From contig MPDC01000004.1 in the NCBI GenBank assembly GCA_001874255.1, forward strand, positions 62,001-126,000: a DNA stretch of 64,000 nt, given 5' to 3'. Positions 33,753 through 48,729 of this stretch are shown here, piece after piece (position 1 is the stretch's first letter; every line of letters starts with the position of its first letter). Source of the DNA: Alphaproteobacteria bacterium MedPE-SWcel. Lineage in GTDB: Bacteria; Pseudomonadota; Alphaproteobacteria; Rhodobacterales; Rhodobacteraceae. The notes beneath the pieces were generated by a model. The model saw nothing but the letters and a program-made list of their open reading frames with translations. It was not told the DNA's origin and searched no databases. The position numbers were made by a program, and so were the translations under genes.

Positions 33753-33825
33753 TCGCCAGGCCCGCGCATAGCCCGCGCGCCACCGGTGCAGGCCCTTGGG
33801 GCCGCCGGGATCTGCCCGCCCCTGC

Positions 33826-34035: not shown

Positions 34036-34689
34036 ATGGGCGAAGATCTCGCAAGCAACTACAAACGCGCATTCGACAATGCGATCGGGTTTGGTGCCAG
34101 GCCTGCCTTGATCTTGGTCGATTTTGCCAAGGCCTATTATGATCCCGACTGCCCGCTGTTTGGCGGCGAAGGCTGCCGGACCGCGCTCGCCTCGGCGCTC
34201 CGCATTCGCGAGGCCGCCCATGCCGCAAACCTGCCGGTGATCCTGACCGAAATGGGTCTGCATCCCACCGGCGTGAACGCGGGCCGGTTCTTCGAAAAAT
34301 CGAAACCGCTGGCCTCCTTCCTGCCCGGTCGAAGCACGGCGGAATTTGCAGAGGGGCTGATCCCGCAGGACGATGAGGTCGTGATCCCGAAACAATATCC
34401 TTCGGCATTCTTCGGCACATCGCTGGCGCCCATGCTCACCTCGCTCGGGGTCGACACGGTCATTTTGACCGGGCTGTCCACCTCCGGCTGTGTGCGGGCC
34501 ACCTGTGTCGACGCGATGTCCTACGGGTTCAGAACCGCCGTCGTCGCCGATGCCTGCGGGGATCGCCATCCCGCTCCGCATGAGGCAAACCTCTTTGATA
34601 TGAATGCCAAATATGCCGATGTCGTCGATGAAGCCACCATCCTGGCCTATATCGCGTCCCGCGCAGAGGCGAATGCCACCCCCGCCTGA
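34036..34689 (+). CDS. Isochorismatase-like cysteine hydrolase
   Basis: A 217-residue member of the isochorismatase-like hydrolases, closest in look to N-carbamoylsarcosine amidases. The triad is visible: aspartate in LVDFAKAYYD, lysine in VIPKQYPSAFFG and cysteine in STSGCVRATCVD. It should hydrolyse an amide or carbamoyl group. It is followed by a terminator and convergent with an AbrB-type membrane gene. As the nearby island includes a RutA-like monooxygenase and an amidase, it may serve the same N-rich substrate, although its sequence differs from RutB. Confidence 0.85.
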   Translation: MGEDLASNYKRAFDNAIGFGARPALILVDFAKAYYDPDCPLFGGEGCRTALASALRIREAAHAANLPVILTEMGLHPTGVNAGRFFEKSKPLASFLPGRSTAEFAEGLIPQDDEVVIPKQYPSAFFGTSLAPMLTSLGVDTVILTGLSTSGCVRATCVDAMSYGFRTAVVADACGDRHPAPHEANLFDMNAKYADVVDEATILAYIASRAEANATPA

Positions 34690-34715
34690 CAACACGGCAG
34701 GCCGGATCACAGGGA

Positions 34716-34742
34716 GCGCCCGTCTCGACGGGCGTTCTTTTT
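34716..34742 (+). terminator. Rho-independent terminator
   Basis: CGCCCGTC (34717-34724), loop TC, GACGGGCG (34727-34734), followed by TTCTTTTT. It lies 27 bp after the isochorismatase-like gene and just before the convergent gene end at 34752. Confidence 0.85.
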
Positions 34743-34751
34743 GCCTGCCCG

Positions 34752-35822
34752 CTAGGGCTGTGGGGGATGTGGCGTCCTGCGCATGACCCATCGCACCGCA
34801 AGCCGCGCCATCACCGGGCCGACCAGGATGACCACGAACAACCGCATGATCTGCAGGGTCATCACCACCGAGATATCCGCCCCCTCGCTGAATGCGATTG
34901 CGGCGATGGCATCGATCGATCCCGGCACGGTGGACAATAGCGCCGTCAGCGGATCGACCCCCCCGACAATCGCCAGAACGAGGCTGAGCAGCGCGCCAAC
35001 CGCATAGAGCGCACAGGCCGCCGCAAGAACCACCGGAAGGCTGCGCGCGGCATCGCTCAGGAAGGCGCGGTCGAACCCAAGCCCGACATTCGCCCCGATC
35101 ACCAGATAGGCGCAGACCAGTACCGCCTGTGGCAAATAGATCGACAGACCCGACAGGTCGAGCACCGACCCCACGGTCAATGGCACCAGCAGTGCCGCAG
35201 CGGGAATGACCCGCAGAAACCTGTCCGCAACCGGCCCGAGCGCAACCAGTGCCACAAGCAGAAACACATCGCCCGACGGCTCGGTCTGCGTCATGCCGGC
35301 TGCAGGCTGGCTGCCGAAGACCCCGACGAGCCCCGCCGTCAGGAAGATCACGACAACGATCCGGACCATCTGGATAACGGCGACCACCCGGGCGTCGAGA
35401 CCGCGGTCATCGCTCATCGCGATCACGGCGCTGGCCATTCCCGGCAGGAACCCCCAGATCGCCGCTTCCCGTTCGATCCGTGCCAGGCGCCCGGTCACGA
35501 CCCCGGCTGCAATGGCGCTGGCCATGACGATCAACAACAGACCGAGGGCCAGCGGCCAGATCCGCTGAACCGTCTCGATCGTATCTGCGCGCAGCGAGGT
35601 CGCCACCAACACGCCGGTCACCGCCTGAGCCGCCGACAGCGCCCAGCGTGGATATCTGAGCCTTGCCCCCGCCAGACCTGCGGCGGCCCCTGCCATCAGG
35701 GGCCCGATCAACAGGGCAGCCGGGACGCCGAGATGCTCCAGCAGCAGCGAGACCGCCAGCGCGCTGAGCACATGGGGGACCCATATGATCAGGCGAGTCC
35801 GCAGGCAAAAGGCAAAGATCAC
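34752..35822 (-). CDS. AbrB-family integral membrane protein
   Basis: A 356-residue hydrophobic protein of the membrane AbrB-duplication family (COG3180), with about ten helices in two similar halves; GPLMAGAAAGLAGAR and QAVTGVLVATSL are typical. Function in the family is poorly known, with transport suggested. The GTG at 35822 is preferred because AGGGGA lies 9 bp upstream; TTG at 35873 and ATG at 35864 are longer options. It follows the MFS gene in the same direction. Confidence 0.82.
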   Translation of the reverse strand: MIFAFCLRTRLIIWVPHVLSALAVSLLLEHLGVPAALLIGPLMAGAAAGLAGARLRYPRWALSAAQAVTGVLVATSLRADTIETVQRIWPLALGLLLIVMASAIAAGVVTGRLARIEREAAIWGFLPGMASAVIAMSDDRGLDARVVAVIQMVRIVVVIFLTAGLVGVFGSQPAAGMTQTEPSGDVFLLVALVALGPVADRFLRVIPAAALLVPLTVGSVLDLSGLSIYLPQAVLVCAYLVIGANVGLGFDRAFLSDAARSLPVVLAAACALYAVGALLSLVLAIVGGVDPLTALLSTVPGSIDAIAAIAFSEGADISVVMTLQIMRLFVVILVGPVMARLAVRWVMRRTPHPPQP

Positions 35823-35931
35823 GCTGGCAATTCCCCTATCGCAACGGTTTGATATAACGTGCATTTCAGGCAATGACCCTGAACACTCCGTGGCGGTATC
35901 GCAGGTCGCGGTTCAGGTCGGAGTCCATGGC

Positions 35932-37170
35932 TCAGGAATGGGACCGCAGCCGGCCAACCGGCCGCTGTCCGCGTTCCCGCAGGAAAAGAGCCAGCGCCAG
36001 CGCCGCGCCCAGCAGGCCCTGAACCGAAAAGACCGCGAAGGTCACGGTAAAACTGCTGAGGAACGGGTAGAGCGTGGCGAAAAGCGACGGGCAGACCATG
36101 ACTCCGAGGAACGTATAGGTCAGGACATCTCCGGTCATCGTGCCCTGCCCGGTACTGGCTTTGGCCACCTCGGCCAGCAACACGCCATTCCAGCCGGATC
36201 CGGTCATCCCGCCAAGGGCGGCCGCAAGGATGCCGATCCAGGGCACGGTCTCCAGGAACTGAAAGGACAGCAGGCTCACGAAGGACAGAAACCCGACAAA
36301 CGCCAGCACCAGAAAGCCGCTTTGAAGCCAGTCGGCCACCAGGCCCCAGAAGATGCGGCCAAAGGCGCCCGCGGCCTGAACCAGAGCGGCAACCAGTGCG
36401 GCCCCGGCGAGCGTCCAGCCGAATTGCTCGACCAGCATGACCACCACGAAGGTCGAGATCATCAGCTGCACCCCCGAAAACAGGAACCCCATGATCGACA
36501 GCGCCCGCAGCGCCGGGCTGGACCAGATTTCCCGCTGCCGGTTCAGGACACCGGCAAAGGGGCGGCTGCCCTGCTGGCGGTCATTGTCCCAGTCGCTGCG
36601 GACCCTTTGATAGGCCAGCGCCAGAAGCAATGGCACCACACCGAGCCACAGCAGCGCCACTTGCCAGCCGAGGCGCGCGGCGAGAAACGGCATCAGCAGC
36701 GCGATCAGGCCACCGCCGACCGGAACCCCTGCCTGTTTGATCGAAAAGATCAGATTGCGCCGCCGGGCCGGGGCCAGCCTGGCCAGAATATGCGAGGATG
36801 ACGGGTTGTTGAGCGCATAGCCGATGCCGATCACGCAGGAGGCAAGCGCGATCATCGCGGTCGATCCGGTCGCCATCACAAAGAGACCGACGGCGCTGCA
36901 GATCAATGCGATCTGCCCGACACGCGCGGCCCCGATCCGGGTGACCCAGCCGCCTGCGAGCATCGAGAAAACCACCCCCGCCGCATAGATCAGCGAGACC
37001 TGATAGCCGATCAGATGGGGCGCGACACCGAGCGCGGTCGCGACCAGTGTCGGGATCGTCGTCAGGGCCAAAACGGACGCTGTCGCAATGACTTGAGACG
37101 CAGAGGTCAGTCCAAGCGCCGTATAGAGCTGCGGCGAAATCCGGGCGGGCGGGCGGTCGTCTTGGGTCAT
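35932..37170 (-). CDS. MFS transporter
   Basis: A 412-residue major facilitator protein with about twelve helices. GGWVTRIGAARVG between helices 2 and 3 matches the family loop motif. The start at 37170 (MTQDDRPPARISP) leaves a short soluble leader before helix 1; the longer frame to 37365 would add a basic non-membrane stretch. It is divergent from the ABC importer at 37471 across a 300-bp gap in which I see no clear operator. Substrate unknown; a role in the RutA-like island is plausible. Confidence 0.85.
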   Translation of the reverse strand: MTQDDRPPARISPQLYTALGLTSASQVIATASVLALTTIPTLVATALGVAPHLIGYQVSLIYAAGVVFSMLAGGWVTRIGAARVGQIALICSAVGLFVMATGSTAMIALASCVIGIGYALNNPSSSHILARLAPARRRNLIFSIKQAGVPVGGGLIALLMPFLAARLGWQVALLWLGVVPLLLALAYQRVRSDWDNDRQQGSRPFAGVLNRQREIWSSPALRALSIMGFLFSGVQLMISTFVVVMLVEQFGWTLAGAALVAALVQAAGAFGRIFWGLVADWLQSGFLVLAFVGFLSFVSLLSFQFLETVPWIGILAAALGGMTGSGWNGVLLAEVAKASTGQGTMTGDVLTYTFLGVMVCPSLFATLYPFLSSFTVTFAVFSVQGLLGAALALALFLRERGQRPVGRLRSHS

Positions 37171-37470
37171 GTGGACACGTTCATTCCTGTGCGCGGCGCA
37201 GACGGCCAGATGGTCGCCCTCGCCCCGCAGTTGCGTCCCTACAGGCATCATCTCTGGGCCATGCGAAGTCAATTCGCGGCCCACCAAGTTTTTCTCAGCG
37301 CTGATGTCAACAATCTTGCGTTTGACGAAACGGGGGGCGCGAGGCGCAGGATTGTGCCATGGCACGGGCCTGGCACCCGGCGGAAATGTCCTTGTCCTTT
37401 CTGCCCAGCGTGTCCCGGCCCCATCACAAATTCCGCCGGCCTGAACCGGTCAAAAACCAATGGGGAAACG

Positions 37471-38616
37471 ATGACAACATCTTCGATCACACGCCGCAGC
37501 ACGCGCGCCTTCCGCGGGGGGACCGCGCTCGCCCTGACCCTCTCCACCGCCCTTGCATCCGTCTTTGCATCTGCGGCTCAGGCCGCCGATCTGGATGCGG
37601 CCCAGGCCATGGTCGACGAATATTCGGCCCTGCCCGTCTTTGAAGCGCCCGGAAAACCCTTTGATGCCGCCGCCTGCATGGCGGGCAAAAAGGTGCTGGT
37701 GGTGCCGGTCACTTCCGCTATTCCGTTCATTTCCGCTATTGCGGAGGAAATGGACAGTGTTGCGGATGAGGTCGGCTTTGACGTCGAGATCTGGAAAAAC
37801 CAGGGCCAGCCGACGCAATGGGTGCAGGGGATCGAATATGCCATCGCCAACGGGTTTGACGCTGTCGATCTGATGGGCGGCATCATCCCGGCCGCGCTTG
37901 CCCCGCAGCTGGCTGCCGCGCATGAGGCAGGGCTGCGCGTTTTCGCGACCCACCACACTGACGTCTCTTACGAGCCGGATCCGAATGCGGATGTGCGCCT
38001 GCCGCTGTCCTTCTCGAAAGTCGGAGAGATCCTCGCCGCCTGGGTGACCACACAAACCGAAGGCAATGCAAATGTGCTCGTGATCGGCACCGATGACGTG
38101 CCCCCGTCCCAGCCCTACTGGAAGAGTTTCGAGGCCAAGCTGGCCGAACTAAGCCCCGAGAGCAAAGCCACCTATGTCAATGTGCCGCTGGCGGATTGGG
38201 CCACCAAGATCCAGACCTCGGTGCAGTCGAACCTGCTGCAGGATCCCGGCATCAACTATATCGTGCCGATCTATGACTCGATGAGCCAGTTCGTCATGCC
38301 GGCCCTCGCCATCACCGGCAAGACCGGCCAGATTCCGATCGCGACCTTCAACGGCACGCCTTTTGTGCTGGATATGATCCGCGAGGGCGACGATGTGGTG
38401 ATGGATATCGGCGAGAGCATGGGCTGGATCGCCCGGTCTGCGGTGGATGCCCATATGCGCGACCTGTGCGACATCGGCGACACCCCCGAGGAGCTCTATG
38501 TCCCGCTCTATATTTTCACCGATGCCAATATCGAAAGCGCTGGCGACCCGGCCGATTTCAACATGGGCTATGGGGACAGTTTCATCTCGGGCTACAAAGA
38601 GCTTTGGGGGCTGTAG
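37471..38616 (+). CDS. ABC transporter, periplasmic binding protein (RbsB-like)
   Basis: A 381-residue type I periplasmic binding protein related to ribose/autoinducer-type binding proteins. A long signal peptide of about 39 residues (twin arginine-like RRSTR near the start, ending ASAAQA) precedes the mature protein. VLVVPVTSAIPFISAIAEEM matches the first strand-helix of the fold. GGGGAA precedes the ATG. It leads an operon with an Rbs-type ATPase, a permease and a flavin reductase, so its ligand may be a nucleoside- or base-like compound rather than a plain sugar. Confidence 0.88.
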   Translation: MTTSSITRRSTRAFRGGTALALTLSTALASVFASAAQAADLDAAQAMVDEYSALPVFEAPGKPFDAAACMAGKKVLVVPVTSAIPFISAIAEEMDSVADEVGFDVEIWKNQGQPTQWVQGIEYAIANGFDAVDLMGGIIPAALAPQLAAAHEAGLRVFATHHTDVSYEPDPNADVRLPLSFSKVGEILAAWVTTQTEGNANVLVIGTDDVPPSQPYWKSFEAKLAELSPESKATYVNVPLADWATKIQTSVQSNLLQDPGINYIVPIYDSMSQFVMPALAITGKTGQIPIATFNGTPFVLDMIREGDDVVMDIGESMGWIARSAVDAHMRDLCDIGDTPEELYVPLYIFTDANIESAGDPADFNMGYGDSFISGYKELWGL

Positions 38617-38620
38617 GCAT

Positions 38621-40225
38621 ATGACCCAGGGGCCGCTTCATGACGGGCTACCGCGACGCACGCCGGGGGAGGCCCCGGCGTTGCTGGCCAGGAATTTCTC
38701 CAAGGTGTTTGGCACATCCAAGGTTCTTGATGCGGTTGATCTGGCCGTGATGCCCGGAGAAATACACGGATTGCTCGGCTCCAACGGGTCGGGCAAATCC
38801 ACATTGATCAAGACCATCGCAGGGCTGCATGCGCCGGAAAAGGGAGCCGAACTGATCCTCTACGGACGCGACATGCCCTTGCCGACGCCCTCGGGCAGTG
38901 CGCGCGCCTCCGGCATTTCCTTTGTTCATCAGCACCTTGCCCTGATCCCTTCGCTGTCGGTTCTGGAGAACATGATGCTCAACGATCTGGCCAGCTCTCA
39001 CAATTGGGCGATCAACTGGGCCAGGATGCGGCGTCACACGCGCGAGGTTTTTGACCGCTTTGATCTGGATCTGGATCTGGACCGGCGCGTGGCGGACCTG
39101 CCGCAGGCCGACCGCGCCCTGCTTGCCATCACACGCGCCTTCGATGAGGTCCAGACCCATGCGACCGGCGGTCAGGGCATCCTCATCCTCGACGAGCCGA
39201 CGCCGTTTCTGCCCCAGGCCGGTGTCGACAAGCTGTTTTCCCTGATGCGCTCTGTCGCGGCAGACGGCGCGGCGGTGATTTTCGTCGCCCATGACATCGA
39301 TGAAATCCGCGAAATCACCGATCGCGCAACCATTCTGCGCGATGGCAAGCTGGCCGGGTCGCTGGTGTCCAAGGAGGCCGATCGCGAGGACTTCATTTCC
39401 CATATCGTCGGCGAAAAAGTCTCGCTGTTTCAGACCAGCCATGACGCGCCCGAGGGCGGCAAACGCGCCGCCGCCATCCGGGGTCTGGACTGCGGGTCGG
39501 TCTCGCAGGTGAGCTTTGACATCACCGAAGGCGAGATCGTCGGGCTGACCGGTCTGATCGGATCCGGGTTCGACGTGGTCCCGGAGGCCCTGTTCGGGGC
39601 GCAAAAAGCCGAGCGCGGATCGCTGACGCTGGGCGATGGCCGCGTCCTCGATCTGGCGGCGGTGCGGCCCGAGAACCTGCTGGCGCAGGGGGTGGCCTTT
39701 CTGCCGTCTGACCGGCTGGGGCGGGCGGGGATCGGCAGCCTGCCGATCTATGAGAACATGGCCCTGCCGGTGCTGAAGCGGTTCCGCTCGCCCCTTGGCA
39801 TTGACTGGCCCGCGGTCAAATCCCACTGCGCCGAACTTGGGCAGGCGTTTGACCTCAGACCGGCGCGGGTGGATCTGAACCTTGGCGCATTGTCCGGTGG
39901 CAACGCCCAGAAGGCGCTGCTGGCGAAATGGCTGCAGACCCGTCCCAAACTGCTGATGCTGGACGAGCCGACCCAGGGCATCGACGTCGGCGCGCGGCAA
40001 AAGATCTTCAAGGAAGTGCACAAGGCAGCGCGGCAGGGGACGGCGGTCATCGTGGCCTCGACCGATGCCGAGCAGCTGGCGCAGATTTGCCACCGCATCC
40101 TCGTCTTTTCAAAGGGTTGCATCGTGTCCGAGTTGATCGGCGACCAGATCACCAAAGACTCCATCACTCAGGAAACACTGCGCGCCAGCTCTCTGCCGCG
40201 CCAAAAGACACTGGAGGTCGCATAG
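38621..40225 (+). CDS. ABC transporter ATPase with two nucleotide domains (RbsA-like)
   Basis: A 534-residue tandem ATPase. The first domain has Walker A GSNGSGKST and Walker B ILILDEPT, but its signature motif is LPQAD in place of LSGGQ. The second domain has a degenerate Walker A region (GLIGSGFDV), as is common in RbsA proteins, with an intact signature LSGGN and LLMLDEPTQG. It begins 4 bp after the binding-protein stop and abuts the permease start. One composite ATP site should still be functional. Confidence 0.9.
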   Translation: MTQGPLHDGLPRRTPGEAPALLARNFSKVFGTSKVLDAVDLAVMPGEIHGLLGSNGSGKSTLIKTIAGLHAPEKGAELILYGRDMPLPTPSGSARASGISFVHQHLALIPSLSVLENMMLNDLASSHNWAINWARMRRHTREVFDRFDLDLDLDRRVADLPQADRALLAITRAFDEVQTHATGGQGILILDEPTPFLPQAGVDKLFSLMRSVAADGAAVIFVAHDIDEIREITDRATILRDGKLAGSLVSKEADREDFISHIVGEKVSLFQTSHDAPEGGKRAAAIRGLDCGSVSQVSFDITEGEIVGLTGLIGSGFDVVPEALFGAQKAERGSLTLGDGRVLDLAAVRPENLLAQGVAFLPSDRLGRAGIGSLPIYENMALPVLKRFRSPLGIDWPAVKSHCAELGQAFDLRPARVDLNLGALSGGNAQKALLAKWLQTRPKLLMLDEPTQGIDVGARQKIFKEVHKAARQGTAVIVASTDAEQLAQICHRILVFSKGCIVSELIGDQITKDSITQETLRASSLPRQKTLEVA

Positions 40226-41224
40226 ATGCCCCACCCCACCGACACGCCCGCGCTGGCACCTCGCAGACACCTGAACTGGGCGCAGCTGGGCGAGAGCTAT
40301 GCGCTTGTGATCGTGATGATCGCGCTGTTTGGCGTCTTTTCCCTGCTGTTGCCCACCACGTTTTTCTCCTGGGCCAATGTGTCGACCATGCTCGGGTCGC
40401 AGGCGATCCTGGTGTTTCTGACGCTGTCGCTGATCCTGACGCTCACGGCGGGGGATTTCGATCTCTCGGTGGCGGCGACGCTGACGATTTCCGCGATGAC
40501 CGTTGCCGTGCTCAATGCGCAGCTGGAGGTGCCGCTGGTCCTGGCCATTTCCGCCGCGCTGCTGGTCGGGGCCTTCATCGGCCTGGTCAACGGGTTCTTC
40601 ATCCTCTACTTCCGCATTCCCAGCCTGATCGTCACGCTTGGAACAGGGACCTTCATCAACGGGATCGTGCTGTGGATGTCCGGCTCCACCACGATCGGAG
40701 GCATCGACTTCACCCTGATAAAATTCGTTGTGGGCACGCGGTTTCTAGGGATTCCACTGTTGTTTTACTACGCGCTGATCATGTGCCTGATCGTCTGGTA
40801 TGTCTTCGGCTTCACCACCCTGGGGCGGCGGCTTCTGTTCGTTGGCCGCGGTCGGGAGGTGGCCTTGCTGTCCGGCATCAACGTTGAAAAGGTCCGCCTG
40901 GGGGCGCTGATCCTGTCGTCGATGATGGCTGCGCTGGCCGGAGTGTTCTACGCCGGGACACTGGGCGCGGCTGATCCCAATTCGGGAAACAGCTTTCTGT
41001 TGCCTGCCTTTGCGGCTGCCTTTCTCGGGGCGACGGCGATCACGCCGGGCCGCTTCAACCCCATCGGGTCCTTTGTGGCGGTGTATTTCCTCGTGATCGG
41101 CATCACCGGGCTGACCATGCTCGGTATTCAATCCTACGTGCAGAACCTGTTTTACGGCGGCGCCCTGGTGCTGGCGGTGGCGCTGTCGCAACTGGTGCGC
41201 AAACGCGAAGCACAGGAACTCTGA
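40226..41224 (+). CDS. ABC transporter permease (RbsC-like)
   Basis: A 332-residue permease of the BPD_transp_2 type with about ten helices; LTLTAGDFDLSVAATL is the typical LTAGGIDLSVG-like segment, and LGATAITPGRFNPIGS the conserved late motif. It starts directly after the ATPase stop and completes the importer. A stem-loop follows before the flavin reductase gene. Confidence 0.92.
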   Translation: MPHPTDTPALAPRRHLNWAQLGESYALVIVMIALFGVFSLLLPTTFFSWANVSTMLGSQAILVFLTLSLILTLTAGDFDLSVAATLTISAMTVAVLNAQLEVPLVLAISAALLVGAFIGLVNGFFILYFRIPSLIVTLGTGTFINGIVLWMSGSTTIGGIDFTLIKFVVGTRFLGIPLLFYYALIMCLIVWYVFGFTTLGRRLLFVGRGREVALLSGINVEKVRLGALILSSMMAALAGVFYAGTLGAADPNSGNSFLLPAFAAAFLGATAITPGRFNPIGSFVAVYFLVIGITGLTMLGIQSYVQNLFYGGALVLAVALSQLVRKREAQEL

Positions 41225-41234
41225 TCCCGAAACC

Positions 41235-41257
41235 GGGCCGCCAACAGTCGGCGGCCC
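41235..41257 (+). other. Intercistronic stem-loop
   Basis: GGGCCGCC (41235-41242) and GGCGGCCC (41250-41257) form a perfect 8-bp stem with a 7-nt loop. No T tract follows, so it is more likely a processing or attenuation element between the permease and flavin reductase genes than a full terminator. Confidence 0.55.
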
Positions 41258-41286
41258 GCCCAAAGACCCTCTTGAAAGGAAGATAA

Positions 41287-41778
41287 ATGCCCTTTGAAAC
41301 CACCGGCGCCGACGTCGACATCGGAGCATTCTGGAAAACCCTCGGCGAGCGCGCCATCGGGGCAACCCTTGTCACCACCGACAGCAGCCAGGGCCCTATG
41401 GGGTTTCTCGGGCTGTCGGCGGCACATGTCACCGCCAGCCCGCCGACCATGATCGTATCGATCGACAAGAAGACATCCGCCCTGGAGGGGGTTCGCGAGA
41501 ACCAGCATTTCGCGGTGAACTTTCTGCCCGCGGGCTGTGCGGATCTGGCCAATGCCTTTGGCGGCAAAGGCGAAAAGACATTCGAGGACGGGAAATGGGC
41601 GCCGCTCGCCACTGGTGCGCCCTGCTATGGCGAGGCGCTCGGGGTGTTTGACTGTGCCGTCGAAAGGATCATCGAGCATGGCGACATTTTCATCGTGATC
41701 GGCGCGGTCAAGGCCGTGCGCGCCTCGGGCGAGGGCAAGCCGCTGATCTTCTTTCGCGGCAAATGGCTCGAAGACTGA
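41287..41778 (+). CDS. Flavin reductase-like protein
   Basis: A 163-residue flavin reductase-domain protein (RutF/HpaC fold). GLSAAHVTASPPTMIVSID and NFLPAGCADLANAFGG hold the flavin-binding positions. It should supply reduced FMN to a two-component monooxygenase, and the RutA-like enzyme is convergent with it at 41954. AAGGAAG precedes the start. It is the first of two flavin reductases in the island; a terminator follows. Confidence 0.85.
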   Translation: MPFETTGADVDIGAFWKTLGERAIGATLVTTDSSQGPMGFLGLSAAHVTASPPTMIVSIDKKTSALEGVRENQHFAVNFLPAGCADLANAFGGKGEKTFEDGKWAPLATGAPCYGEALGVFDCAVERIIEHGDIFIVIGAVKAVRASGEGKPLIFFRGKWLED

Positions 41779-41811
41779 GCTCAGCCCGCGATTTTACCGA
41801 TCCTGACTCTG

Positions 41812-41837
41812 CCCCTTCCCACCGGAAGGGGTTTTTT
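41812..41837 (+). terminator. Rho-independent terminator
   Basis: CCCCTTCC (41812-41819), loop CACC, GGAAGGGG (41824-41831) and TTTTTT. It ends the ABC importer/flavin reductase operon. Confidence 0.92.
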
Positions 41838-41895
41838 CATGGCGCGCGCGCCGGCAGGTTTGCGCCATGCGCCAGCACCGCAGGAGCAATGGAAA

Positions 41896-41930
41896 ACGAA
41901 AAAGGCGCGATCCGGAGACCGCGCCTTTTG
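41896..41930 (-). terminator. Rho-independent terminator of the RutA-like gene
   Basis: AAAAGGCGCG (41900-41909) and CGCGCCTTTT (41920-41929) form a 10-bp stem; on the minus strand it ends in a T run. It lies 24 bp after the stop of the RutA-like gene. Confidence 0.88.
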
Positions 41931-41953
41931 ATGCAGATCCTGACGATAGAGAC

Positions 41954-43036
41954 CTATTCGGCCGCCACCGCGAGATGTTCACGGGTTTTCATCAGCGGCT
42001 GGATCTTCTCACCGAAATCATCCAGCCCTTTGTGGAAGTCGTCAAATGTCAGCATGATGCCTTTGACGCCGGCCACCGATGCCGCCTCGTCAAGCAACCT
42101 GGCGCAGGTTTCATAGGAGCCCACGATCGTCCCCATATTGAAGTTGACCGCGCCCTCCGGCAGGTTGATATGCGCCGCCGTCGAGTTCTCGGAGGCCTGC
42201 GCATCCTGCGCGCCCTGTACGCCCATATAGGCCAGCGCGTCGATATCGGCGCCTTCGCGATACATGTTCCATTTGGCCATCGCCGCCTCGTCGGTTTCAT
42301 CCGAGATGCACATCATCAGAACATAGGCGCCGACATCGCGTCCCGTCGCCTTGGCCGCCTCCATCAGGCGCTCGCAGGTCGGAGCGAAGGCCGTCGGCGT
42401 GTTGACGCCAAGACCGTTGACGAAGGCGTAGTCGGAATATTTCGAGGAGAACGCCATGCCGTTTTCCGACTGGCCTGCGGCCACGATCTCGATCTTGTCG
42501 ACCGGCGGCGGGGAGAGCTTGCAGTCCTCCATGGTGAAATGCTCGCCTTTCAGGTCAGAGGAGCCCGTTTCCCACAGATCTTTCATCACCTGAACATATT
42601 CAGACGCGTAATCATAGCGATAGCCGAAATACTCATTCCCGGGCCAGACGCCCATCTGGGTATATTCATTGGGGGCCCAGCCGGTCACGATATTCACCCC
42701 GATCCGTCCGGGGGCGACATTGTCGATGGTCGAGATCATCCGCGCCGTCAGCGCCGGTGGCAGGGTCAGGATCGCCGAGGAGGCAAACAGCTTGATCCGT
42801 TTCGTGCGCGCCGCCAGGGCCGACATCAGCGTGAAACTCTCAAAGCCGTGATCCCAGAACTCCGATGCGCCGCCAAATCCACGCAGCTTGATCATCGACA
42901 AGGCGAAGTCGAAGCCGAACGCTTCTGCGCGGGTCACGATGTCCAGATTCAGGTCAAAGCTCGGCATGAACTGCGGCGATGTCTTTGAAATCAGCCAGCC
43001 ATTATTGTTGATCGGGATGAAAACACCGATGTCCAT
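41954..43036 (-). CDS. rutA: RutA-like FMN-dependent monooxygenase
   Basis: A 360-residue luciferase-like flavin monooxygenase. It closely matches what I know of pyrimidine monooxygenase RutA along its length: [68 protein letters not shown] and LLTFDDF-like ILTFDDF near the end (here IMLTFDDF). RutA opens the uracil ring with oxygen and reduced FMN from RutF. AGGAGAG precedes the ATG. Other rut genes (rutB, C, D, E, G) are not seen nearby, so this may be a paralogue acting on a different cyclic amide. It is divergent from the LysR gene at 43349. Confidence 0.88.
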
Positions 43037-43209
43037 TTGTCTCTCCTGTCGCGAATGTCAGTCTTGTTCTGGCCTCAGAGTGACAAAGCCGCGTGATTTT
43101 GCCTAAGGCATATATCTTTGGGCCGGACCTCAAAAAAACTCATGCAGTTTGCCCGCCCCCCCGGGGGCTTCGGCCGGAAGGGCACAGCAACTGCGCTGCG
43201 ATTGTGCAG

Positions 43210-43229
43210 TTGCAGCATAGGTGCTGCAA
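43210..43229. promoter_or_regulatory. Perfect inverted repeat, candidate LysR operator
   Basis: TTGCAGCATAGGTGCTGCAA is an 8-bp perfect inverted repeat with a 4-bp spacer, in the 312-bp divergent gap between the RutA-like gene and the LysR gene. A second, smaller palindrome (TGCCTAAGGCA, 43100-43110) lies nearer the RutA-like start. Apart from these I see nothing else in the gap. Confidence 0.6.
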
Positions 43230-43348
43230 ATTGCGCCACAGCGCTCATCCGGCCCTACGTCAAAGGCGAAAACCGCTTTCGTGCCGGCGGCAACCTGTCA
43301 CGCTTTGGCACGACAGGACGCGGCCACATCCATGAAGGAGGGCAGAGC

Positions 43349-44266
43349 ATGCGCAAACGAGTACCCCTAAACGCGATTCGCGCGTTCGAGGCGGTTGCAC
43401 GCCATCAATCGGTGGCCAAGGCCGCGGACGAGCTGTGCGTGACGCCGACCGCCGTCAGCCACCAGATCCGCCTGCTTGAGGATTTCCTGCAGGTCGATCT
43501 CTTCACCCGCAAGAACAGCCGGATTTACATGACGCCGGAATCGGGCACCATTCTGGAACGGATCAGCACAGCCCTTGATCTGATCGAGGATTCCGTGATC
43601 TCGCTGCAGAATGTGCAGGACGAAAAGGATCGTCGCCTGGCGGTTGGCGCATCCAGTTCGGTGGCCTCGCATTTCCTCATGCCCCGCATTGGCGCGTTTC
43701 TGAACGACGTGCCGGATATCGACCTGAGCCTGCATACCTATCTGACCCTCCGGGAGGCGGAAACACAGCAAATCGACATCACCATCTGCAACTGGGACAG
43801 CAAGCGCGACTGGAAGAAGGAACCGCTTGTTGAGGAGGAAATCATCCCCGTCTGCACGCCGGAGCTGGCGCAGACCTATGGCAATGACCCGTCCAGAATT
43901 CTCAGCGAAGCGCCGCTGATCCATTCGGATCGCATCGGGTTCGACGGCACCCTGCCCGATTGGAGCAAGTATATGGCGAAATACGGAATTTCCCGCGCCG
44001 ACCTGCTGCATGGCCCGAGGTTCAATCAGGCGGGCTCCGCGACAGAGGCGGCGCGCTCCGGGGTCGGGGTGTTGCTGGGGCGGTCGTTGCTGGTGCAGTC
44101 CTGTATCGAAAAGGGAGATCTGGTCCCTGTTGCCGAGAGCTACCCTGAGCGCAGTGTCTACTACATGTTGACGCCCTGGGAATCCGAACGCGGGCCACTG
44201 CTGCAGCGGTTCAAGGACTGGCTGTTGAAGAATGTCGAGGGCAACGGGTTTGTTCATGCCGCCTGA
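43349..44266 (+). CDS. LysR-family regulator (GcvA-like)
   Basis: A 305-residue regulator with an N-terminal winged helix (AIRAFEAVARHQSVAKAADE, then TPTAVSHQIRLLE) and a substrate-binding domain. GGAGG lies about 8 bp before the ATG at 43349; a longer in-frame start at 43118 would read through the operator region. Divergent from the RutA-like gene and upstream of the amidase genes, it probably regulates both. The inverted repeat at 43210-43229 is a good candidate site. Confidence 0.9.
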   Translation: MRKRVPLNAIRAFEAVARHQSVAKAADELCVTPTAVSHQIRLLEDFLQVDLFTRKNSRIYMTPESGTILERISTALDLIEDSVISLQNVQDEKDRRLAVGASSSVASHFLMPRIGAFLNDVPDIDLSLHTYLTLREAETQQIDITICNWDSKRDWKKEPLVEEEIIPVCTPELAQTYGNDPSRILSEAPLIHSDRIGFDGTLPDWSKYMAKYGISRADLLHGPRFNQAGSATEAARSGVGVLLGRSLLVQSCIEKGDLVPVAESYPERSVYYMLTPWESERGPLLQRFKDWLLKNVEGNGFVHAA

Positions 44267-44369
44267 TGGCCGCAAAGGCGCTGAGGAAAATTCAATAGTG
44301 CCCTGAGAATTTGCGGCGTGGCAGATTGTGCGGGGCGTGTTTCACTGAACGCAACTTCAGGAGAAACAC

Positions 44370-45671
44370 ATGAAACCACATGAGTTCCCATCGGCCACCA
44401 ACATTGCCGAGGCTGTTCAGAGCGGACAGCAAACGGCCGCCGAGATCGCCGGCGCGGCTCTGGGCCGGGTCGAGGCATACGATCATATGGTGCGGGCCTT
44501 TGCCTGTGTGGACCCGGCGCTGGTAGAGGCGCAGGCACAGGCGGTTGATGGCATGGCGACGAAGGGCAAGCTGGCCGGTGTCACCGTCGGGGTGAAGGAT
44601 GTGATCGCGACCAAGGATTTGCCCACCAGCCAGAACAACAGCCGGTATCAAGGCCGGCGCACCGGGGTTGATGCCGCCTGTATCGACACGCTGCGCCATC
44701 ACGGGGCCGTCCTCCTCGGCAAGACCGTCACCACCGAATTTGCCGCGACCCAGCGCGGCAGCGTGACCTGCAATCCGCATGACTTCACCCGGACGCCGGG
44801 CGGGTCCTCTTCGGGGTCGGCGGCAGCGGTTGCGGCGGGGCTCTGTGCGCTTGCGCTTGGCACGCAAACGGGCGGATCGGTCATCCGGCCTGCGGCGTTC
44901 TGCGGGGTCTGGGGGTGGAAGCCGACCTGGAACACGATCTCGCGGGAGGGTCTGAAGCTCTACTCGCTGACCTGCGACACGGTCGGCTTCTACGCCAATG
45001 ACCCCGCCGATTTCACCCTGCTTGCCGATGTGTTCGATCTCGATCCGGCGCCGCAGCGCCTGCCGACGTCCCTGCGGGGGCAGCGGATTGGCCTCTGCAA
45101 GGGGCCAAACTGGCACCGGGTGGCCCCGGCCATGCGAACCGCATTCGAGGATGCGGCAAAGCGGCTCCGGCTGGAAGGCGCGGATGTGGTCAATATCCAT
45201 TTGCCGGATCTTTTCAACGATCTGGACGCCGCGCATGGCACCATTCTGGCCCGCGAGGGACGCACCGCCTTTCACAATGAGCTGAGCGTCCAGGGCGGCG
45301 ATCTGCATCCCGAGTTCCATGAGATGACGGACCGGGCCAAGCGCTTTGCCCCGATGGATGTCCGTATGGCCTATACGCTGGCCGACACCTGCCGCAGCGA
45401 ATTCGAGGAGCTGATCTCGGGGTTTGACGCGATCATCACGCCCTCTGCCACCGACGAGGCCCCGGTGGGGCTGGCGAACACAGGCGATCCCTCGATGAAT
45501 TCGATCTGGACGCTTTTGCATGTGCCGGTGGTGTCCGTGCCCGGCCTGTTGGGTCCGCATGATCTGCCGCTGGGGATCTCTGTGATCACCCCGCGCTACA
45601 CCGACCGCATGACCATCGCCCTCGCCACTCTGGTGGGGGACGTGCTCTCGCTTGAAGCGGTCATGAGCTGA
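44370..45671 (+). CDS. Amidase-signature family amidase
   Basis: A 433-residue amidase with the Ser-cisSer-Lys triad: lysine in GVTVGVKDV (near 74), serine in TPGGSSSGSAAAVAAG (near 150) and the nucleophile in TQTGGSVIRPAAFCG (near 173). It is cytoplasmic, with no signal peptide. TCAGGAG precedes the start. It follows the LysR gene and precedes a flavin reductase, so it may hydrolyse the amide left after ring opening by the RutA-like enzyme. Allophanate-hydrolase-like or other amidase roles cannot be separated by sequence alone. Confidence 0.9.
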   Translation: MKPHEFPSATNIAEAVQSGQQTAAEIAGAALGRVEAYDHMVRAFACVDPALVEAQAQAVDGMATKGKLAGVTVGVKDVIATKDLPTSQNNSRYQGRRTGVDAACIDTLRHHGAVLLGKTVTTEFAATQRGSVTCNPHDFTRTPGGSSSGSAAAVAAGLCALALGTQTGGSVIRPAAFCGVWGWKPTWNTISREGLKLYSLTCDTVGFYANDPADFTLLADVFDLDPAPQRLPTSLRGQRIGLCKGPNWHRVAPAMRTAFEDAAKRLRLEGADVVNIHLPDLFNDLDAAHGTILAREGRTAFHNELSVQGGDLHPEFHEMTDRAKRFAPMDVRMAYTLADTCRSEFEELISGFDAIITPSATDEAPVGLANTGDPSMNSIWTLLHVPVVSVPGLLGPHDLPLGISVITPRYTDRMTIALATLVGDVLSLEAVMS

Positions 45672-45711
45672 CCGCAGATGACATCGGTTTCGAACTCAAA
45701 GGCTGCCTGAA

Positions 45712-46263
45712 ATGGAAGATACAGTGACACTTTCCCCTCCCCGTCCCTCGCACACGCACACGCCCCCGGCAACAGACCGTCAGCCCGCCAGCCGCGAGGC
45801 CTTTCGCGATGGCATGGCGCATCTGGCGGCTGCCGTGAACATCATCACCACGGACGGGCCCGGAGGCCGCGCGGGCTTCACCGCCACGGCGGTCTGCTCG
45901 GTCACGGACAGCCCGCCGACGCTGCTGGTCTGCCTGAATGCCACCAGTTCGGCGGCCGAGATCTTTGGCCGCAATTCGGCGCTTTGCGTCAACACGATCG
46001 CCGCCAGCCAGACGGAGATCGCCATGGCCTTCGGCGGCAAGACCCCGATGCCAGAGCGCTTTGCCGGGGCCCAATGGCACAGGGATGTTTCGGGCGCGCC
46101 GGTGCTGACCGGGGCAAGCGTCGCGTTTGATTGCCGGATCACCGATCGCAAGGAAATCGGCACGCATATCGTGCTGTTTTGCGAGGTTCTGGCCGTGGCT
46201 CAGGCCGGAACCGCCTCGGCCTCGGTCTATTTCGCCCGCAAATTCCACCACCTGGAGGCATGA
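45712..46263 (+). CDS. Flavin reductase, RutF/HpaC-like
   Basis: A 183-residue flavin reductase with a proline-rich leader of about 25 residues, then FRDGMAHLAAAVNIITTDG, GFTATAVCSVTDSPPTLLVC and ERFAGAQWHRDVSGAPVL, closely matching RutF-type reductases. It should supply reduced FMN, most likely to the RutA-like monooxygenase. Its stop overlaps the next start (ATGA). Confidence 0.88.
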   Translation: MEDTVTLSPPRPSHTHTPPATDRQPASREAFRDGMAHLAAAVNIITTDGPGGRAGFTATAVCSVTDSPPTLLVCLNATSSAAEIFGRNSALCVNTIAASQTEIAMAFGGKTPMPERFAGAQWHRDVSGAPVLTGASVAFDCRITDRKEIGTHIVLFCEVLAVAQAGTASASVYFARKFHHLEA

Positions 46264-46892
46264 CAGTGTCCCCGTTTGACGCCCCGACACGGAACCCGCA
46301 GGCCGAGCCCCGGGATGCCCCGAAGCCCCCGGCCATCAGGAGCCTACAGGACGGCCAGCCCATTGTGGTCCGGAGCGCGGCACGGGGGGCTTTCATGATG
46401 ATGTCGTCGCGGTTTTCGTCGCCGGATTGGGTCAACTACATGGCGACCCACGCGCGCGGTCTTTTGGGGCTGACGCTGACGCCCTCGCGCGCGCTGGAGC
46501 TGGGCCTCAGCCTGCAACCCAGACGCGGCCGCAGTGATCGCCCTCTCTACACGCAATCCATCGAGGCCCGTCACAGGGTGACCAGCGGCATCTCCGCCTA
46601 TGATCGCTGGCTGACGGTGCAGGCCGCCACCCGGGGCGAAGCCAGCGATATCGTGACGCCCGGCCATGTCTTTCCCCAGCTGCCCGAGGGAAAGCCGGAG
46701 GCGCATGCCGATCGTGCCGAGGCGCTTCTGGCTGCGGCGGGGCTGCCGTCCGGCGCGATGATCTGTTCGGTCCTGGACGAGACGGGGGGCACGCCTGACG
46801 CGGCCTATCTCCTCTCGCTTGCGGCGCGACTTGGGATCGCAATTGCAGAGCCTGCGCCGCCGCGCCCCGCCACGGCAGACGCTGGCCAATAG
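46260..46892 (+). CDS. RibB-like protein lacking the acidic loop
   Basis: A 210-residue protein whose middle matches 3,4-dihydroxy-2-butanone-4-phosphate synthase (VTSGISAYDRWLTVQAA, then VTPGHVFPQ). The usual metal-binding loop (DDEDRENEGD in E. coli RibB) is replaced by a stretch without acids (RSAARGAFMMMSSRFSS), and the RGGHTEA segment reads EAHADRA. It may therefore lack normal RibB activity. Coupled by a 4-bp overlap to a flavin reductase, it could relate to flavin supply or act as a regulatory or repurposed protein. Confidence 0.78.
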   Translation: MTVSPFDAPTRNPQAEPRDAPKPPAIRSLQDGQPIVVRSAARGAFMMMSSRFSSPDWVNYMATHARGLLGLTLTPSRALELGLSLQPRRGRSDRPLYTQSIEARHRVTSGISAYDRWLTVQAATRGEASDIVTPGHVFPQLPEGKPEAHADRAEALLAAAGLPSGAMICSVLDETGGTPDAAYLLSLAARLGIAIAEPAPPRPATADAGQ

Positions 46893-46935
46893 CCTGCCCG
46901 CCCGAGGGTGACGCATCGCGCGCCGTCCTTCGATA

Positions 46936-46988: not shown

Positions 46989-47897
46989 TCAGATGTCGGC
47001 GTTGCGAAATATGTCGTCCACCCAGTCCACAAAGACGCGGACCCGGGGCGAAAGCTGTCGGTTCTGCGGGTAGAAGACCGCCAGCGGCAGGGGCGGCGGC
47101 GGCATCTCGGGGAACAGCTCGATCAGGCGGCCCGCGGCGAGGTCGGCGCGAAACCGGTAGCGGGGGGCCTGAACAATCCCGAAGCCCAGCCGCGCCAGAT
47201 CATGGACCGTTTCCGCATCATTGGCGACAATCCGGCTGGGCAGATCAATGTCGCGCAGCCCTTCGGGCGTGGCAAACTCCAATGGCAGAACGCGGCCCGT
47301 GCGCGACGAGACGAAGCCGACCATCTGATGGCCGGCCCTGTCATCAAGCAGGTCGTCCAGCCCCTGTGGCGTTCCATGTGTCGCGAGATACGCCGGGCTG
47401 GCGCAGGTGATTTCACGCAGCGGCGGCAGCCTGTGCATGATCATGCCACTGTCATCCGGATCCCCCGCCCGGATCACGCAGTCCACCCCTTCCCGGACCA
47501 GATCAACCAGTCGATCGCCCTGTCCCAGCTGCAAAGTGATCCTGGGATAGCGCGCCATGAGGTCCGGCAGCCTTGGCACCAGAAAGGCCCGGCTGAGCGC
47601 GCCATGGGCATCGACACGCAACAGGCCGGCGGGCTCGCTGCCACGCAGGGCGCCTTCGGCCTCCTCCACATCCGCGAGGATCGCCAGACACCGCGTATAG
47701 TAGGCCGCGCCCTCCGGGGTTGGCGCCACATGCCGGGTGGTGCGGTCCAGCAAGCGGGCCCCCAGATCCCGTTCGAGCCGTTGAATGACATCCGTCGCCG
47801 TCGAGCGCGGAATACGCATGTCTGTGGCCGCCGCCGTGAAGCTGCGCCGTTCGACCACCCGCACAAACAGGCGCATTGCGTTCAATCTATCCGCCAT
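46989..47897 (-). CDS. LysR-family regulator
   Basis: A 302-residue LysR protein with the N-terminal winged helix (AMRLFVRVVERRSFTAAATD, then IPRSTATDVIQRLE) and a C-terminal effector domain (GFGIVQAPRYR). It is divergent from the SDR gene at 47992 with 94 bp between them, so it probably regulates that gene. An inverted repeat lies in the gap. Confidence 0.92.
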   Translation of the reverse strand: MADRLNAMRLFVRVVERRSFTAAATDMRIPRSTATDVIQRLERDLGARLLDRTTRHVAPTPEGAAYYTRCLAILADVEEAEGALRGSEPAGLLRVDAHGALSRAFLVPRLPDLMARYPRITLQLGQGDRLVDLVREGVDCVIRAGDPDDSGMIMHRLPPLREITCASPAYLATHGTPQGLDDLLDDRAGHQMVGFVSSRTGRVLPLEFATPEGLRDIDLPSRIVANDAETVHDLARLGFGIVQAPRYRFRADLAAGRLIELFPEMPPPPLPLAVFYPQNRQLSPRVRVFVDWVDDIFRNADI

Positions 47898-47945: not shown

Positions 47946-47991
47946 CACCAGAGGTTTCCCTATCTTCCGCCCATGAGAATTGGAGACGGAA

Positions 47992-48729
47992 ATGAAACAC
48001 ATACAGAAGACCGCAATCGTGACAGGCGCATCCCGGGGGATTGGCGCGGCAATCGCGCTTCGGCTGGCAGAAGACGGGCATGCCGTGGTTGTGAATTTCG
48101 CCAGCAATGCGGCGGCCGCACAGGCCGTGGTAGAGCAGATCGAGGCGCAGGGGGGCACAGCCACGGCCCTGCAGGCCGATATCTCCGACCCCAAGGCCGC
48201 AAGGGCGTTGTTTGATGCGGCCGAGGACCGTTTCGGCCCGGCCGATATTCTGGTCAACAACGCGGGCATCATGCGCAATGCGGCGATTGCCACGGCGACC
48301 GATGCCGATTTTGACCAGCAGTGCGCGATCAATATCGGCGGCCCGTTTCGCTGCATGCGCGAGGCGGCCAGCCGCCTGCGGGACGGCGGGCGGATCATCA
48401 GCATTTCGTCGAGTGTCGTCGGGCTCTATCAGCCGAGCTACGGGCTCTATGCGGCGACCAAGGCCGCGACCGAAGCCCTGAGCCACGTCCTGGCAAAGGA
48501 GCTCGGTTCGCGCGGCATCACCGTCAACTCCGTGGCTCCGGGGCCGGTCGCAACGGAGTTGTTCCTGGAGGGAAAGCCGGATGAGTTGATCCGGGCCATC
48601 ACCGGATCGATCCCCCTCGGCCGACTCGGGACCGTCGACGACATTGCCGCTGTTGTGTCATTTCTGGCGGGTCCCGATGGCCGTTGGGTCAACGGGCAAA
48701 CCATCCGGGCCAATGGCGGTGTGATCTAG
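47992..48729 (+). CDS. SDR-family oxidoreductase (FabG-like)
   Basis: A 245-residue classical short-chain dehydrogenase. TGASRGIG near residue 12 binds NAD(P), NNAG near 87 is structural, and the catalytic serine and YAATK (Tyr-x3-Lys) are present. GGAGA lies 6 bp before the ATG at 47992. The substrate is unknown; genes of this kind beside a divergent LysR are common in xenobiotic or secondary redox metabolism. Confidence 0.92.
   Translation: MKHIQKTAIVTGASRGIGAAIALRLAEDGHAVVVNFASNAAAAQAVVEQIEAQGGTATALQADISDPKAARALFDAAEDRFGPADILVNNAGIMRNAAIATATDADFDQQCAINIGGPFRCMREAASRLRDGGRIISISSSVVGLYQPSYGLYAATKAATEALSHVLAKELGSRGITVNSVAPGPVATELFLEGKPDELIRAITGSIPLGRLGTVDDIAAVVSFLAGPDGRWVNGQTIRANGGVI

What the first reader, a model, noticed from the sequence alone, without database searches (positions are those of the whole stretch)
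34036..46892. RutA-like catabolic island without the rest of rut
A close RutA relative is accompanied by two flavin reductases, an amidase, a carbamoyl-type hydrolase, an Rbs-type importer, two further membrane proteins and a LysR regulator, but no rutB, C, D, E or G. The set suggests uptake and opening of a cyclic amide or uracil-like compound by flavin-peroxide chemistry followed by amidase steps, possibly a new pathway.
Basis: partly seen in the sequence, partly recalled or inferred. Interest (0 to 1): 0.75.

Follow-up and report, generated by a model that had tools for sequence, protein, structure and literature searches.

The report
RutA-sister enzyme in amide-degrading island
A bacterium carries a self-contained set of genes, resembling but distinct from the known uracil-breaking pathway, that probably imports and breaks open some other small ring-shaped amide, so the automatic label "pyrimidine utilization protein A" is probably misleading.

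Summary
A RutA relative (585 bits, RutA cut-off 498) lies with two flavin reductases, an amidase, an isochorismatase-fold hydrolase, a CUT2 (Rbs-type) importer, MFS and AbrB-type membrane proteins and a LysR regulator, with no RutB, C, D, E or G nearby. The 99.68%-complete genome has no second RutA and no RutB, C or D over cut-off, but it has the gene set of the reductive uracil route (PreA, dihydropyrimidinase, an M20 carbamoylase-family hydrolase, a PreT-like subunit). The enzyme is not a displaced rut-operon RutA: those sampled form one clade, and placing this protein in it is rejected (p-AU 5e-6). Similar clusters were found in nine other records: amidase 10 of 10 (window included), CUT2 permease 6, ISO-type hydrolase 5, RutB/C/D 0. 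Active-site residues are mostly kept; the O2-pocket Thr is Ser, and a stretch at 304-310 differs consistently. Most likely: an inducible island that imports a cyclic imide or ureide other than uracil, opens it by RutA-like flavin chemistry and hydrolyses off the remaining amide or carbamoyl nitrogen. The substrate is unknown and uracil is not excluded. A RibB relative lacking its catalytic loop ends one operon. Six literature searches of an open-licence library listed no description.

The parts
34036..34689 (+). ISO: isochorismatase-superfamily hydrolase nearest to N-carbamoylsarcosine amidohydrolase
   Evidence: PF00857 120 bits; PDB 26st N-carbamoylsarcosine amidohydrolase 138 bits, RutB 46 bits; 69% identical homologue in the Rhizobium rhododendri cluster L147
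34752..35873 (-). AbrB-duplication membrane protein (start uncertain)
   Evidence: TIGR03082 219 bits, cut-off 94.7, PF05145; also beside RutA in Allosediminivita L012; 2 of 10 island loci
35932..37170 (-). MFS transporter (start by codon-use score)
   Evidence: weak MFS models, none over cut-off; homologues in 6 of 10 island loci within 12 kb
37471..38616 (+). SBP: periplasmic binding protein of the CUT2/Rbs-type importer
   Evidence: PF13407 74 bits; homologues in 5 of 10 island loci
38621..40225 (+). CUT2 importer ATPase (start uncertain)
   Evidence: YtfR/XylG/RbsA-type models up to 319 bits; none of the 25 shown of 191 is over its cut-off
40226..41224 (+). CUT2 importer permease
   Evidence: AraH and D-allose permease models up to 146 bits, none of 10 over cut-off; in 6 of 10 island loci
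41287..41778 (+). FRED1: flavin reductase
   Evidence: PF01613 99 bits; HsaB 98, RutF 89 bits, under cut-off
41954..43036 (-). RutA-sister flavin monooxygenase
   Evidence: TIGR03612 585 bits; outside the rut-operon clade; active-site residues mostly kept
43349..44266 (+). LysR regulator (GcvA-like), divergent from rutA
   Evidence: GcvA model 231 bits, under its cut-off of 288; 60-76% homologues in L012, L013, G059 and L145
44370..45671 (+). AMID: amidase-signature amidase
   Evidence: PF01425 226 bits; malonamidase E2 about 204 bits; amidase in 10 of 10 island loci
45712..46263 (+). FRED2: RutF/HpaC-like flavin reductase
   Evidence: RutF model 231 bits, cut-off 254.75
46260..46892 (+). RIBBL: RibB (DHBP synthase) relative without the DRENEGD loop; with this start it overlaps FRED2 by 4 bases
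   Evidence: PF00926 92 bits; loop absent in 3 of 3 members, present in 10 of 10 RibB sequences compared
46989..47897 (-). second LysR regulator; membership in the pathway uncertain
   Evidence: PF00126/PF03466; a matching LysR-SDR pair in congener G008, which has no RutA match at E <= 1e-60
47980..48729 (+). short-chain dehydrogenase; membership uncertain
   Evidence: PF13561; paired with LysR2 in G008

Best explanation
A regulated catabolic island for a small cyclic imide or ureide (a ring with CO-NH-CO, for example a hydantoin-type or modified pyrimidine compound) other than uracil. Inferred steps: the CUT2 ABC importer brings the compound in; FRED1 and FRED2 supply reduced FMN; the RutA-sister enzyme makes a flavin-N5 peroxide in its oxygen pocket and cleaves the ring C-N amide bond, giving an open-chain acid that still bears a ureido or carboxamide group; the RutF-like reductase may also reset the flavin N5-oxide; the amidase and the N-carbamoylsarcosine-amidase-like hydrolase remove the remaining nitrogen as ammonia (and CO2 if ureido); LysR controls the divergent rutA and lysR-amidase-FRED2-RIBBL genes. 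Shown: gene content, conserved clustering, placement outside the rut clade, conserved active-site residues, a separate reductive uracil gene set. Inferred: substrate class, reaction, order of steps, regulation.
For: Ten loci compared, window included: amidase 10 of 10, CUT2 permease 6, ISO-type hydrolase 5, AguB-like hydrolase 3, M20 carbamoylase-family hydrolase 1, RutB/C/D/G 0; of 11 rut-type loci 0 have the amidase, the ISO-type hydrolase or the CUT2 permease. L65, N134, V136, W139, E143 and F224 kept in 10 of 10 island proteins. The window protein inside the rut clade is rejected, p-AU 5e-6. The genome has PreA 714 bits and dihydropyrimidinase 600 bits, both over cut-off, with an M20 hydrolase (TIGR01879 384 bits, cut-off 204) and a PreT-like subunit in one locus; PreA in 4 of 6 island genomes searched. 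Ureide/amide-type partners in relatives: hydantoin/allantoin-racemase-like protein in Thioclava, M20 hydantoinase/carbamoylase in Acuticoccus, hydantoinase A/B plus a 58% ISO homologue near a distant RutA-like gene in G084.
Against: The RutA passes the curated RutA cut-off. Cluster content varies between loci, so they may not share one substrate. Palleronia L148 has a malonic semialdehyde reductase (PRK05365 299 bits, cut-off 152) and a Rid protein nearby, and G294 a RutE-like gene beside its RutA-like gene, as in uracil breakdown. PreA was not found in 2 of 6 island genomes. ISO sequence does not tell carbamoyl from half-amide substrates. E292, named as lining the si-side cavity, is not kept, though it varies among rut proteins too. 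Structure models were too poor to use. The 10 main island RutA were not recovered as one clade in the second tree, although one clade was not rejected (p-AU 0.17).
Confidence: 0.5

Rival explanations
1. A variant uracil/thymine pathway: the enzyme is a true uracil monooxygenase, the isochorismatase-fold hydrolase or the amidase replaces RutB, and the later Rut steps are done by unlinked enzymes or run spontaneously.
For: RutA cut-off passed; six of seven tested active-site positions identical; RutF-like reductase; malonic semialdehyde reductase and Rid protein in the Palleronia cluster; RutE-like gene beside the RutA-like gene of G294; PreA not found in G059 and Acuticoccus; rut-type loci themselves vary, with RutE in 0, RutG in 1 and a flavin reductase in 3 of 11.
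Against: A separate reductive uracil gene set in the window's own genome; RutB, RutC and RutD not over cut-off anywhere in it; placement outside the rut clade; consistent changes at T105 and 304-310; importer and two amide hydrolases besides RutA.
Confidence: 0.22
2. A cyclic-imide pathway without any ureido group: a maleimide- or succinimide-like ring is opened to a half-amide, which ISO and the malonamidase-like amidase hydrolyse to a dicarboxylic acid.
For: ISO matches the isochorismatase-family hydrolases 4l07 and 3ot4 at 138 and 119 bits (that these are maleamate amidases is recalled, not from a call); amidase nearest to malonamidase E2; a maleate-isomerase-like gene beside a RutA-like gene in G228; aconitase-type and PEP-mutase/isocitrate-lyase-type genes with an ISO homologue in G084.
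Against: Carbamoylase-type hydrolases in L013, L014 and G059 and a hydantoin-racemase-like protein in Thioclava; the G228 and G084 loci carry much more distant RutA-like proteins.
Confidence: 0.15
3. The monooxygenase does another group C reaction (C-S, C-halogen or ester cleavage) and the amidases act on an unrelated amide of the same compound.
For: Group C enzymes said to use N5-oxygenated flavin cleave C-Cl and C-S as well as amide bonds (PMC7662398 and PMC8283759, passages); sulfone and sulfonate enzymes share the family.
Against: Far closer to RutA (496 bits) than to any other solved structure listed (111 bits or less); oxygen-pocket positions kept or conservatively changed.
Confidence: 0.08

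Closest known systems
Rut pathway (E. coli rutABCDEFG)
   Same: RutA-family FMN monooxygenase with a RutF-like reductase; ISO is of the same superfamily as RutB (PF00857)
   Different: RutA outside the rut-operon clade; RutB, C and D not over cut-off in the genome, RutE and RutG not nearby; adds CUT2 importer, amidase, MFS, AbrB-type protein, LysR and RIBBL
Reductive pyrimidine catabolism (PreTA, dihydropyrimidinase, carbamoylase)
   Same: ends in hydrolysis of an N-carbamoyl compound (pathway knowledge recalled)
   Different: ring opened by hydrolysis after reduction; its gene set lies separately at G000:C53
N-carbamoylsarcosine amidohydrolase and related isochorismatase-family hydrolases
   Same: closest solved structures to ISO
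   Different: here beside a RutA-type gene; substrate not known
Lumichrome catabolism (PMC12746152; first part and passages)
   Same: pyrimidine ring opened and the urea group removed by amidases
   Different: ring opening there is hydrolytic (LumH); RutA does not occur in its text
RibB (DHBP synthase)
   Same: RIBBL matches the family (PF00926)
   Different: RIBBL lacks the DRENEGD loop

Membership tests
Rut pathway / rut operon | RutA over the NCBIfam equivalog cut-off | tested here: met
   584.9 bits, cut-off 498.3
Rut pathway / rut operon | RutA groups with RutA of rut operons | tested here: not met
   rut clade 100/99 without it; p-AU 5e-6 against the window protein inside
Rut pathway / rut operon | RutB in the genome | tested here: not met
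   best 56.6 bits, cut-off 377.95, genome 99.68% complete
Rut pathway / rut operon | RutC and RutD in the genome | tested here: not met
   best 56.9 (cut-off 169.1) and 90.6 bits (cut-off 238.5); none within 12 kb of RutA
Rut pathway / rut operon | RutE and RutG | tested here: inconclusive
   none within 12 kb of RutA, but also 0 and 1 of 11 rut-type loci; not searched genome-wide
Rut pathway / rut operon | RutF | tested here: inconclusive
   FRED2 231 bits, cut-off 254.75
Rut pathway / rut operon | turnover of uracil/thymine | not testable with these tools
   needs an enzyme assay
RutA-type flavin N5-peroxide monooxygenase (mechanism) | oxygen-pocket and active-site residues L65, T105, N134, V136, W139, E143, F224 | tested here: met
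   six identical in 10 of 10 island proteins, T105 is Ser in 10 of 10. Positions from passages of PMC10005588 and PMC7662398, E143 recalled; the numbering offset of 19 is my own matching. E292 varies in both groups
N-carbamoylsarcosine amidohydrolase | closest family by sequence; substrate | tested here: inconclusive
   138 bits, equal to 4l07; substrate not testable
RibB (DHBP synthase) | DRENEGD loop (catalytic role recalled) | tested here: not met
   absent in 3 of 3, present in 10 of 10 compared RibB; 62 bits against TIGR00506 cut-off 177

The most novel reading that the evidence does not exclude
An undescribed oxidative pathway for cyclic ureides or imides, driven by a RutA-sister family of flavin-N5 amide-cleaving monooxygenases that outnumbers rut-operon RutA in the class sample (9 of the 12 proteins over the RutA cut-off that were placed on the tree lie outside the rut clade) and within which the uracil enzyme is one derived branch; the island also recruits a RibB relative without its catalytic loop as a dedicated partner.
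Probability: 0.4. Interest if true: 0.72.

Novelty: new variant of a known kind. Interest (0 to 1): 0.55.

Why it matters
RutA is a hallmark enzyme of flavin-N5 chemistry, known for uracil and thymine (PMC7662398, passages). If its sisters open other cyclic amides, that chemistry has a natural substrate range still to be found, and many genes named 'pyrimidine utilization protein A' are misannotated: in a sample of 385 genomes of the window's class (Alphaproteobacteria by inference from named matches), 8 have a RutA over its cut-off, the window's included, but only 3 a RutB. The clusters name testable partners (importer, reductases, hydrolases) and named strains for growth tests.

Tried and rejected
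Riboflavin or lumichrome catabolism was considered because of the flavin reductases and the RibB relative: the lumichrome paper (PMC12746152, first of six parts and passages) describes another gene set with hydrolytic ring opening and does not mention RutA; rejected. A displaced complete rut operon was rejected. A LysR operator: no T-N11-A dyad passed my simple test in four intergenic stretches; the window and L012 share the word CTCATGCAG in the rutA-lysR gap, not tested further. AlphaFold models of SBP and RIBBL were poor (mean pLDDT 44.9 and 37.6), so no fold search was made. Literature: six searches, of which searches listed 25 of 88 and 25 of 113 papers; no listed title or abstract start describes RutA relatives in amidase clusters. 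The library holds open-licence papers only; two RutA papers sought by id were not held.

Limits of the counts. One search kept the best 80 of 129 relatives. One search matched 68 plasmid records and listed 40, of which I fetched seven. One search counts tblastn matches at E <= 1e-15 covering 40% of the query within 12 kb, with extra bit thresholds for RutB, RutC, RutD and RutG; 19 of 79 orphan loci and 1 of 12 rut loci were dropped for being under 12 kb, and L123-L130 were not given. In G059 the amidase/FRED2/RIBBL block lies 14-16 kb from RutA, so its RIBBL is not counted there. Rut-type loci were defined by their neighbouring rut genes. In one search L115 was dropped by name, and a spurious 14-residue frame and one protein under 300 residues (L126) by rule, leaving 106 of 109. 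In one search, 44 rows of 113 were used: 11 of 12 rut, 10 island, 3 second copies, 17 hand-picked orphans, 3 outgroup. Island loci were found through close RutA relatives, so their likeness is partly by selection.
Full report
Observation. The central enzyme is an unmistakable RutA relative: 585 bits against the RutA equivalog model, cut-off 498, and 496 bits to the RutA of PDB 6sgg. Its companions are two flavin reductases (one RutF-like at 231 bits, cut-off 254.75), an amidase-signature amidase whose nearest solved structures are malonamidase E2, an isochorismatase-fold hydrolase whose nearest solved structures include N-carbamoylsarcosine amidohydrolase, a CUT2 importer, an MFS and an AbrB-type protein, and a GcvA-like LysR gene divergent from rutA.

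The genome. The window lies in G000:C34, in a 4.08 Mb genome 99.68% complete. It has one RutA over cut-off and no RutB, RutC or RutD over cut-off (best 56.6, 56.9 and 90.6 bits). RutE and RutG were not searched genome-wide. At G000:C53 lies the gene set of reductive uracil breakdown: dihydropyrimidinase 600 bits (cut-off 393) and PreA 714 bits (cut-off 335), an M20 hydrolase (TIGR01879 384 bits, cut-off 204; its best-scoring model is named allantoate amidohydrolase), and, by inspection of the translations, a PreT-like subunit, a TetR-like regulator and an ABC importer. PreA was found in 4 of 6 island-bearing genomes searched, not in G059 or Acuticoccus.

Distribution and history. Among 148 genomes (own and relatives) a RutA homologue at E <= 1e-60 was found in 4, the own genome included, and in none of the 17 other congeners listed, one of them only 67% complete. 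Congener G010 is collinear on both sides of the island (83-91% identity) and lacks about 16.2 kb, window 32612 to 48820. In the 333 bases that G010 has at that place, 61 bases at 85% match window 38408-38468 and 33 bases at 94% match 39226-39258, each E 1.8e-8; these lie in the importer genes. I read this as loss of the island in G010, leaving a scar, so that the common ancestor had it. GC content is 0.636 in the island and 0.644 in the flanks compared.

Related clusters. A scan of the species genomes found 129 relatives and kept 80 loci. The nearest were Allosediminivita pacifica (86%), Gemmobacter nectariphilus (76%), Kaistia dalseonensis (68%) and Acuticoccus mangrovi (67%). A plasmid search added Thioclava (78%), Novosphingobium resinovorum (70%), Rhizobium rhododendri (69%) and Palleronia (68%). 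With G059 (74%) and the window there are 10 island-type loci. Within 12 kb of RutA: amidase 10 of 10, flavin reductase 6, MFS 6, CUT2 permease 6, CUT2 binding protein 5, ISO-type hydrolase 5, AguB-like hydrolase 3, RIBBL 2, AbrB-type 2, M20 hydrolase 1, RutE-type reductase 1, RutB, RutC, RutD and RutG 0. In 11 rut-type loci of at least 12 kb: RutC and RutD 11, RutB 10, flavin reductase 3, RutG 1, RutE 0, amidase, ISO-type hydrolase, MFS and CUT2 permease 0. So missing RutE and RutG do not set the island apart, while missing RutB, C and D and the extra genes do. In 60 further RutA loci of at least 12 kb, mostly Acetobacteraceae by record title: amidase 28, ISO-type 6, hydantoinase A/B 4, RutB/C/D/E/G 0, flavin reductase 0, CUT2 permease 0. 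RutA relatives outside rut operons are thus of at least two kinds.

The enzyme. In a tree of 106 RutA-like proteins the 10 rut-type sequences form one group (100/99); 7 of 9 island proteins, one second copy included, form another (96/91), and two second copies lie elsewhere. In a second tree of 44 rows with three distant proteins as outgroup, the rut group (11 rows) is again one clade (100/99), nested among the non-rut sequences; holding the window protein inside it lowers the log-likelihood by 111 (p-AU 5e-6). The 10 main island proteins were not recovered as one clade there, but one clade is not rejected (p-AU 0.17). The outgroup branch is long, so the rooting is unsure. Residues named for the oxygen pocket and active site (T105, N134, W139: PMC10005588, passages; L65, V136, F224: PMC7662398, passages; E143 recalled) are kept in 10 of 10 island proteins, except that Thr105 is Ser in 10 of 10, in 3 of 3 second copies and in 75 of 82 other non-rut proteins, against Thr in 12 of 12 rut proteins. 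E292, which PMC10005588 places beside the si-side cavity, varies in both groups. T304, N305, Q308 and A310, invariant in 12 rut proteins, are Ser, Thr, mostly His (8 of 10) and Asn in the island set, the first, second and last in 10 of 10. Whether that stretch touches the substrate could not be tested.

What it probably does. Three observations argue against plain uracil use: a separate uracil gene set, a place outside the rut clade with consistent changes, and an importer plus two amide hydrolases that the Rut operon lacks. Partners point to ureide or amide chemistry, with different hydrolase superfamilies in different loci: an ISO similar to N-carbamoylsarcosine amidohydrolase (window, and 69% identical in R. 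rhododendri), an AguB-like hydrolase (149 bits, under its cut-off, in Gemmobacter; homologues in G059 and Acuticoccus), a hydantoinase/carbamoylase-family protein (419 bits, cut-off 204, Acuticoccus) and a hydantoin/allantoin-racemase-like protein in Thioclava (40 bits). In G084 a 58% ISO homologue lies near a distant RutA-like gene, with hydantoinase A and B, aconitase-type and PEP-mutase-type genes. I therefore commit to a cyclic imide or ureide as substrate, opened by RutA-type chemistry, with later hydrolysis of the remaining nitrogen. Results on the other side: Palleronia has a malonic semialdehyde reductase over its cut-off and a Rid protein near its cluster, G294 a RutE-like gene beside its contig-end RutA-like gene, and two island genomes lack a PreA match; for those, uracil use is possible. 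Both of these genomes carry a second RutA of one subclade (L092_15907, L014_4728), an idea to test, on very few genomes.

The RibB relative. RIBBL occurs with the amidase and FRED2 in the window, G059 and Thioclava. In all three the DRENEGD loop is absent, while 10 of 10 RibB sequences from relatives have it; the three share an LQP(R/Q)R motif. It is unlikely to make dihydroxybutanone phosphate. Its role is unknown; a part in flavin or substrate handling is a guess from its place beside a flavin reductase.

Novelty. Six literature searches over open-licence papers listed nothing on such clusters; subscription papers were not searched. PMC8283759 (passages) and PMC7662398 (passages) name RutA, DszA and HcbA1 as the N5-peroxide or N5-oxide group C enzymes. 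I rate the island a new variant of a known kind: RutA-type chemistry in a different pathway setting. Of four island proteins scanned, three pass the RutA cut-off and one second copy (478 bits) does not, and the Thioclava and Palleronia records name theirs rutA, so routine annotation presents them as uracil enzymes. In a class sample of 385 genomes 8 had RutA over cut-off and 3 RutB.

Noticed in passing
L169 (G010:C44) about 7165-7499; window 32612-48820: Congener G010 lacks the island but keeps short matches to the importer genes at the site, which suggests loss in G010 rather than recent gain in the window's genome.
   Followed up: yes
G185, G369, G447, G170; L016-L084 and L086: RutA relatives outside rut operons are common; G185 has four over the RutA cut-off and no RutB over its cut-off. 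In 28 of 60 longer non-rut, non-island loci an amidase lies nearby.
   Followed up: partly
G369:C2 about 107429-108094: G369 has a RutB over cut-off on a contig where no RutA at E <= 1e-100 was listed; its two RutA lie on other contigs.
   Followed up: no
L114 (G183): A locus in the rut clade with RutA, RutC and RutD adjacent but no RutB match at E <= 1e-60 in the genome.
   Followed up: no
L130 (G084:C47) 9561-19426: A distant RutA-like gene (41% to E. coli RutA) near a 58% ISO homologue, aconitase-type pair, PEP-mutase/isocitrate-lyase-type protein and hydantoinase A/B: possibly another ring-opening pathway.
   Followed up: partly
L124 (G228:C5) 8746-10630: A RutA-like gene (43%) next to a maleate-isomerase/arylmalonate-decarboxylase-like gene that is 61% identical to the one beside rutA in Roseomonas haemaphysalidis L149.
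   Followed up: partly
window 27373-28548(-): Predicted protein with an N-terminal run of repeated Asn-Ala-Tyr units.
   Followed up: no
window 50929-57456(-): A compact ATP-synthase-like gene group to the right of the island, conserved in G010 (naming by eye from the translations).
   Followed up: no
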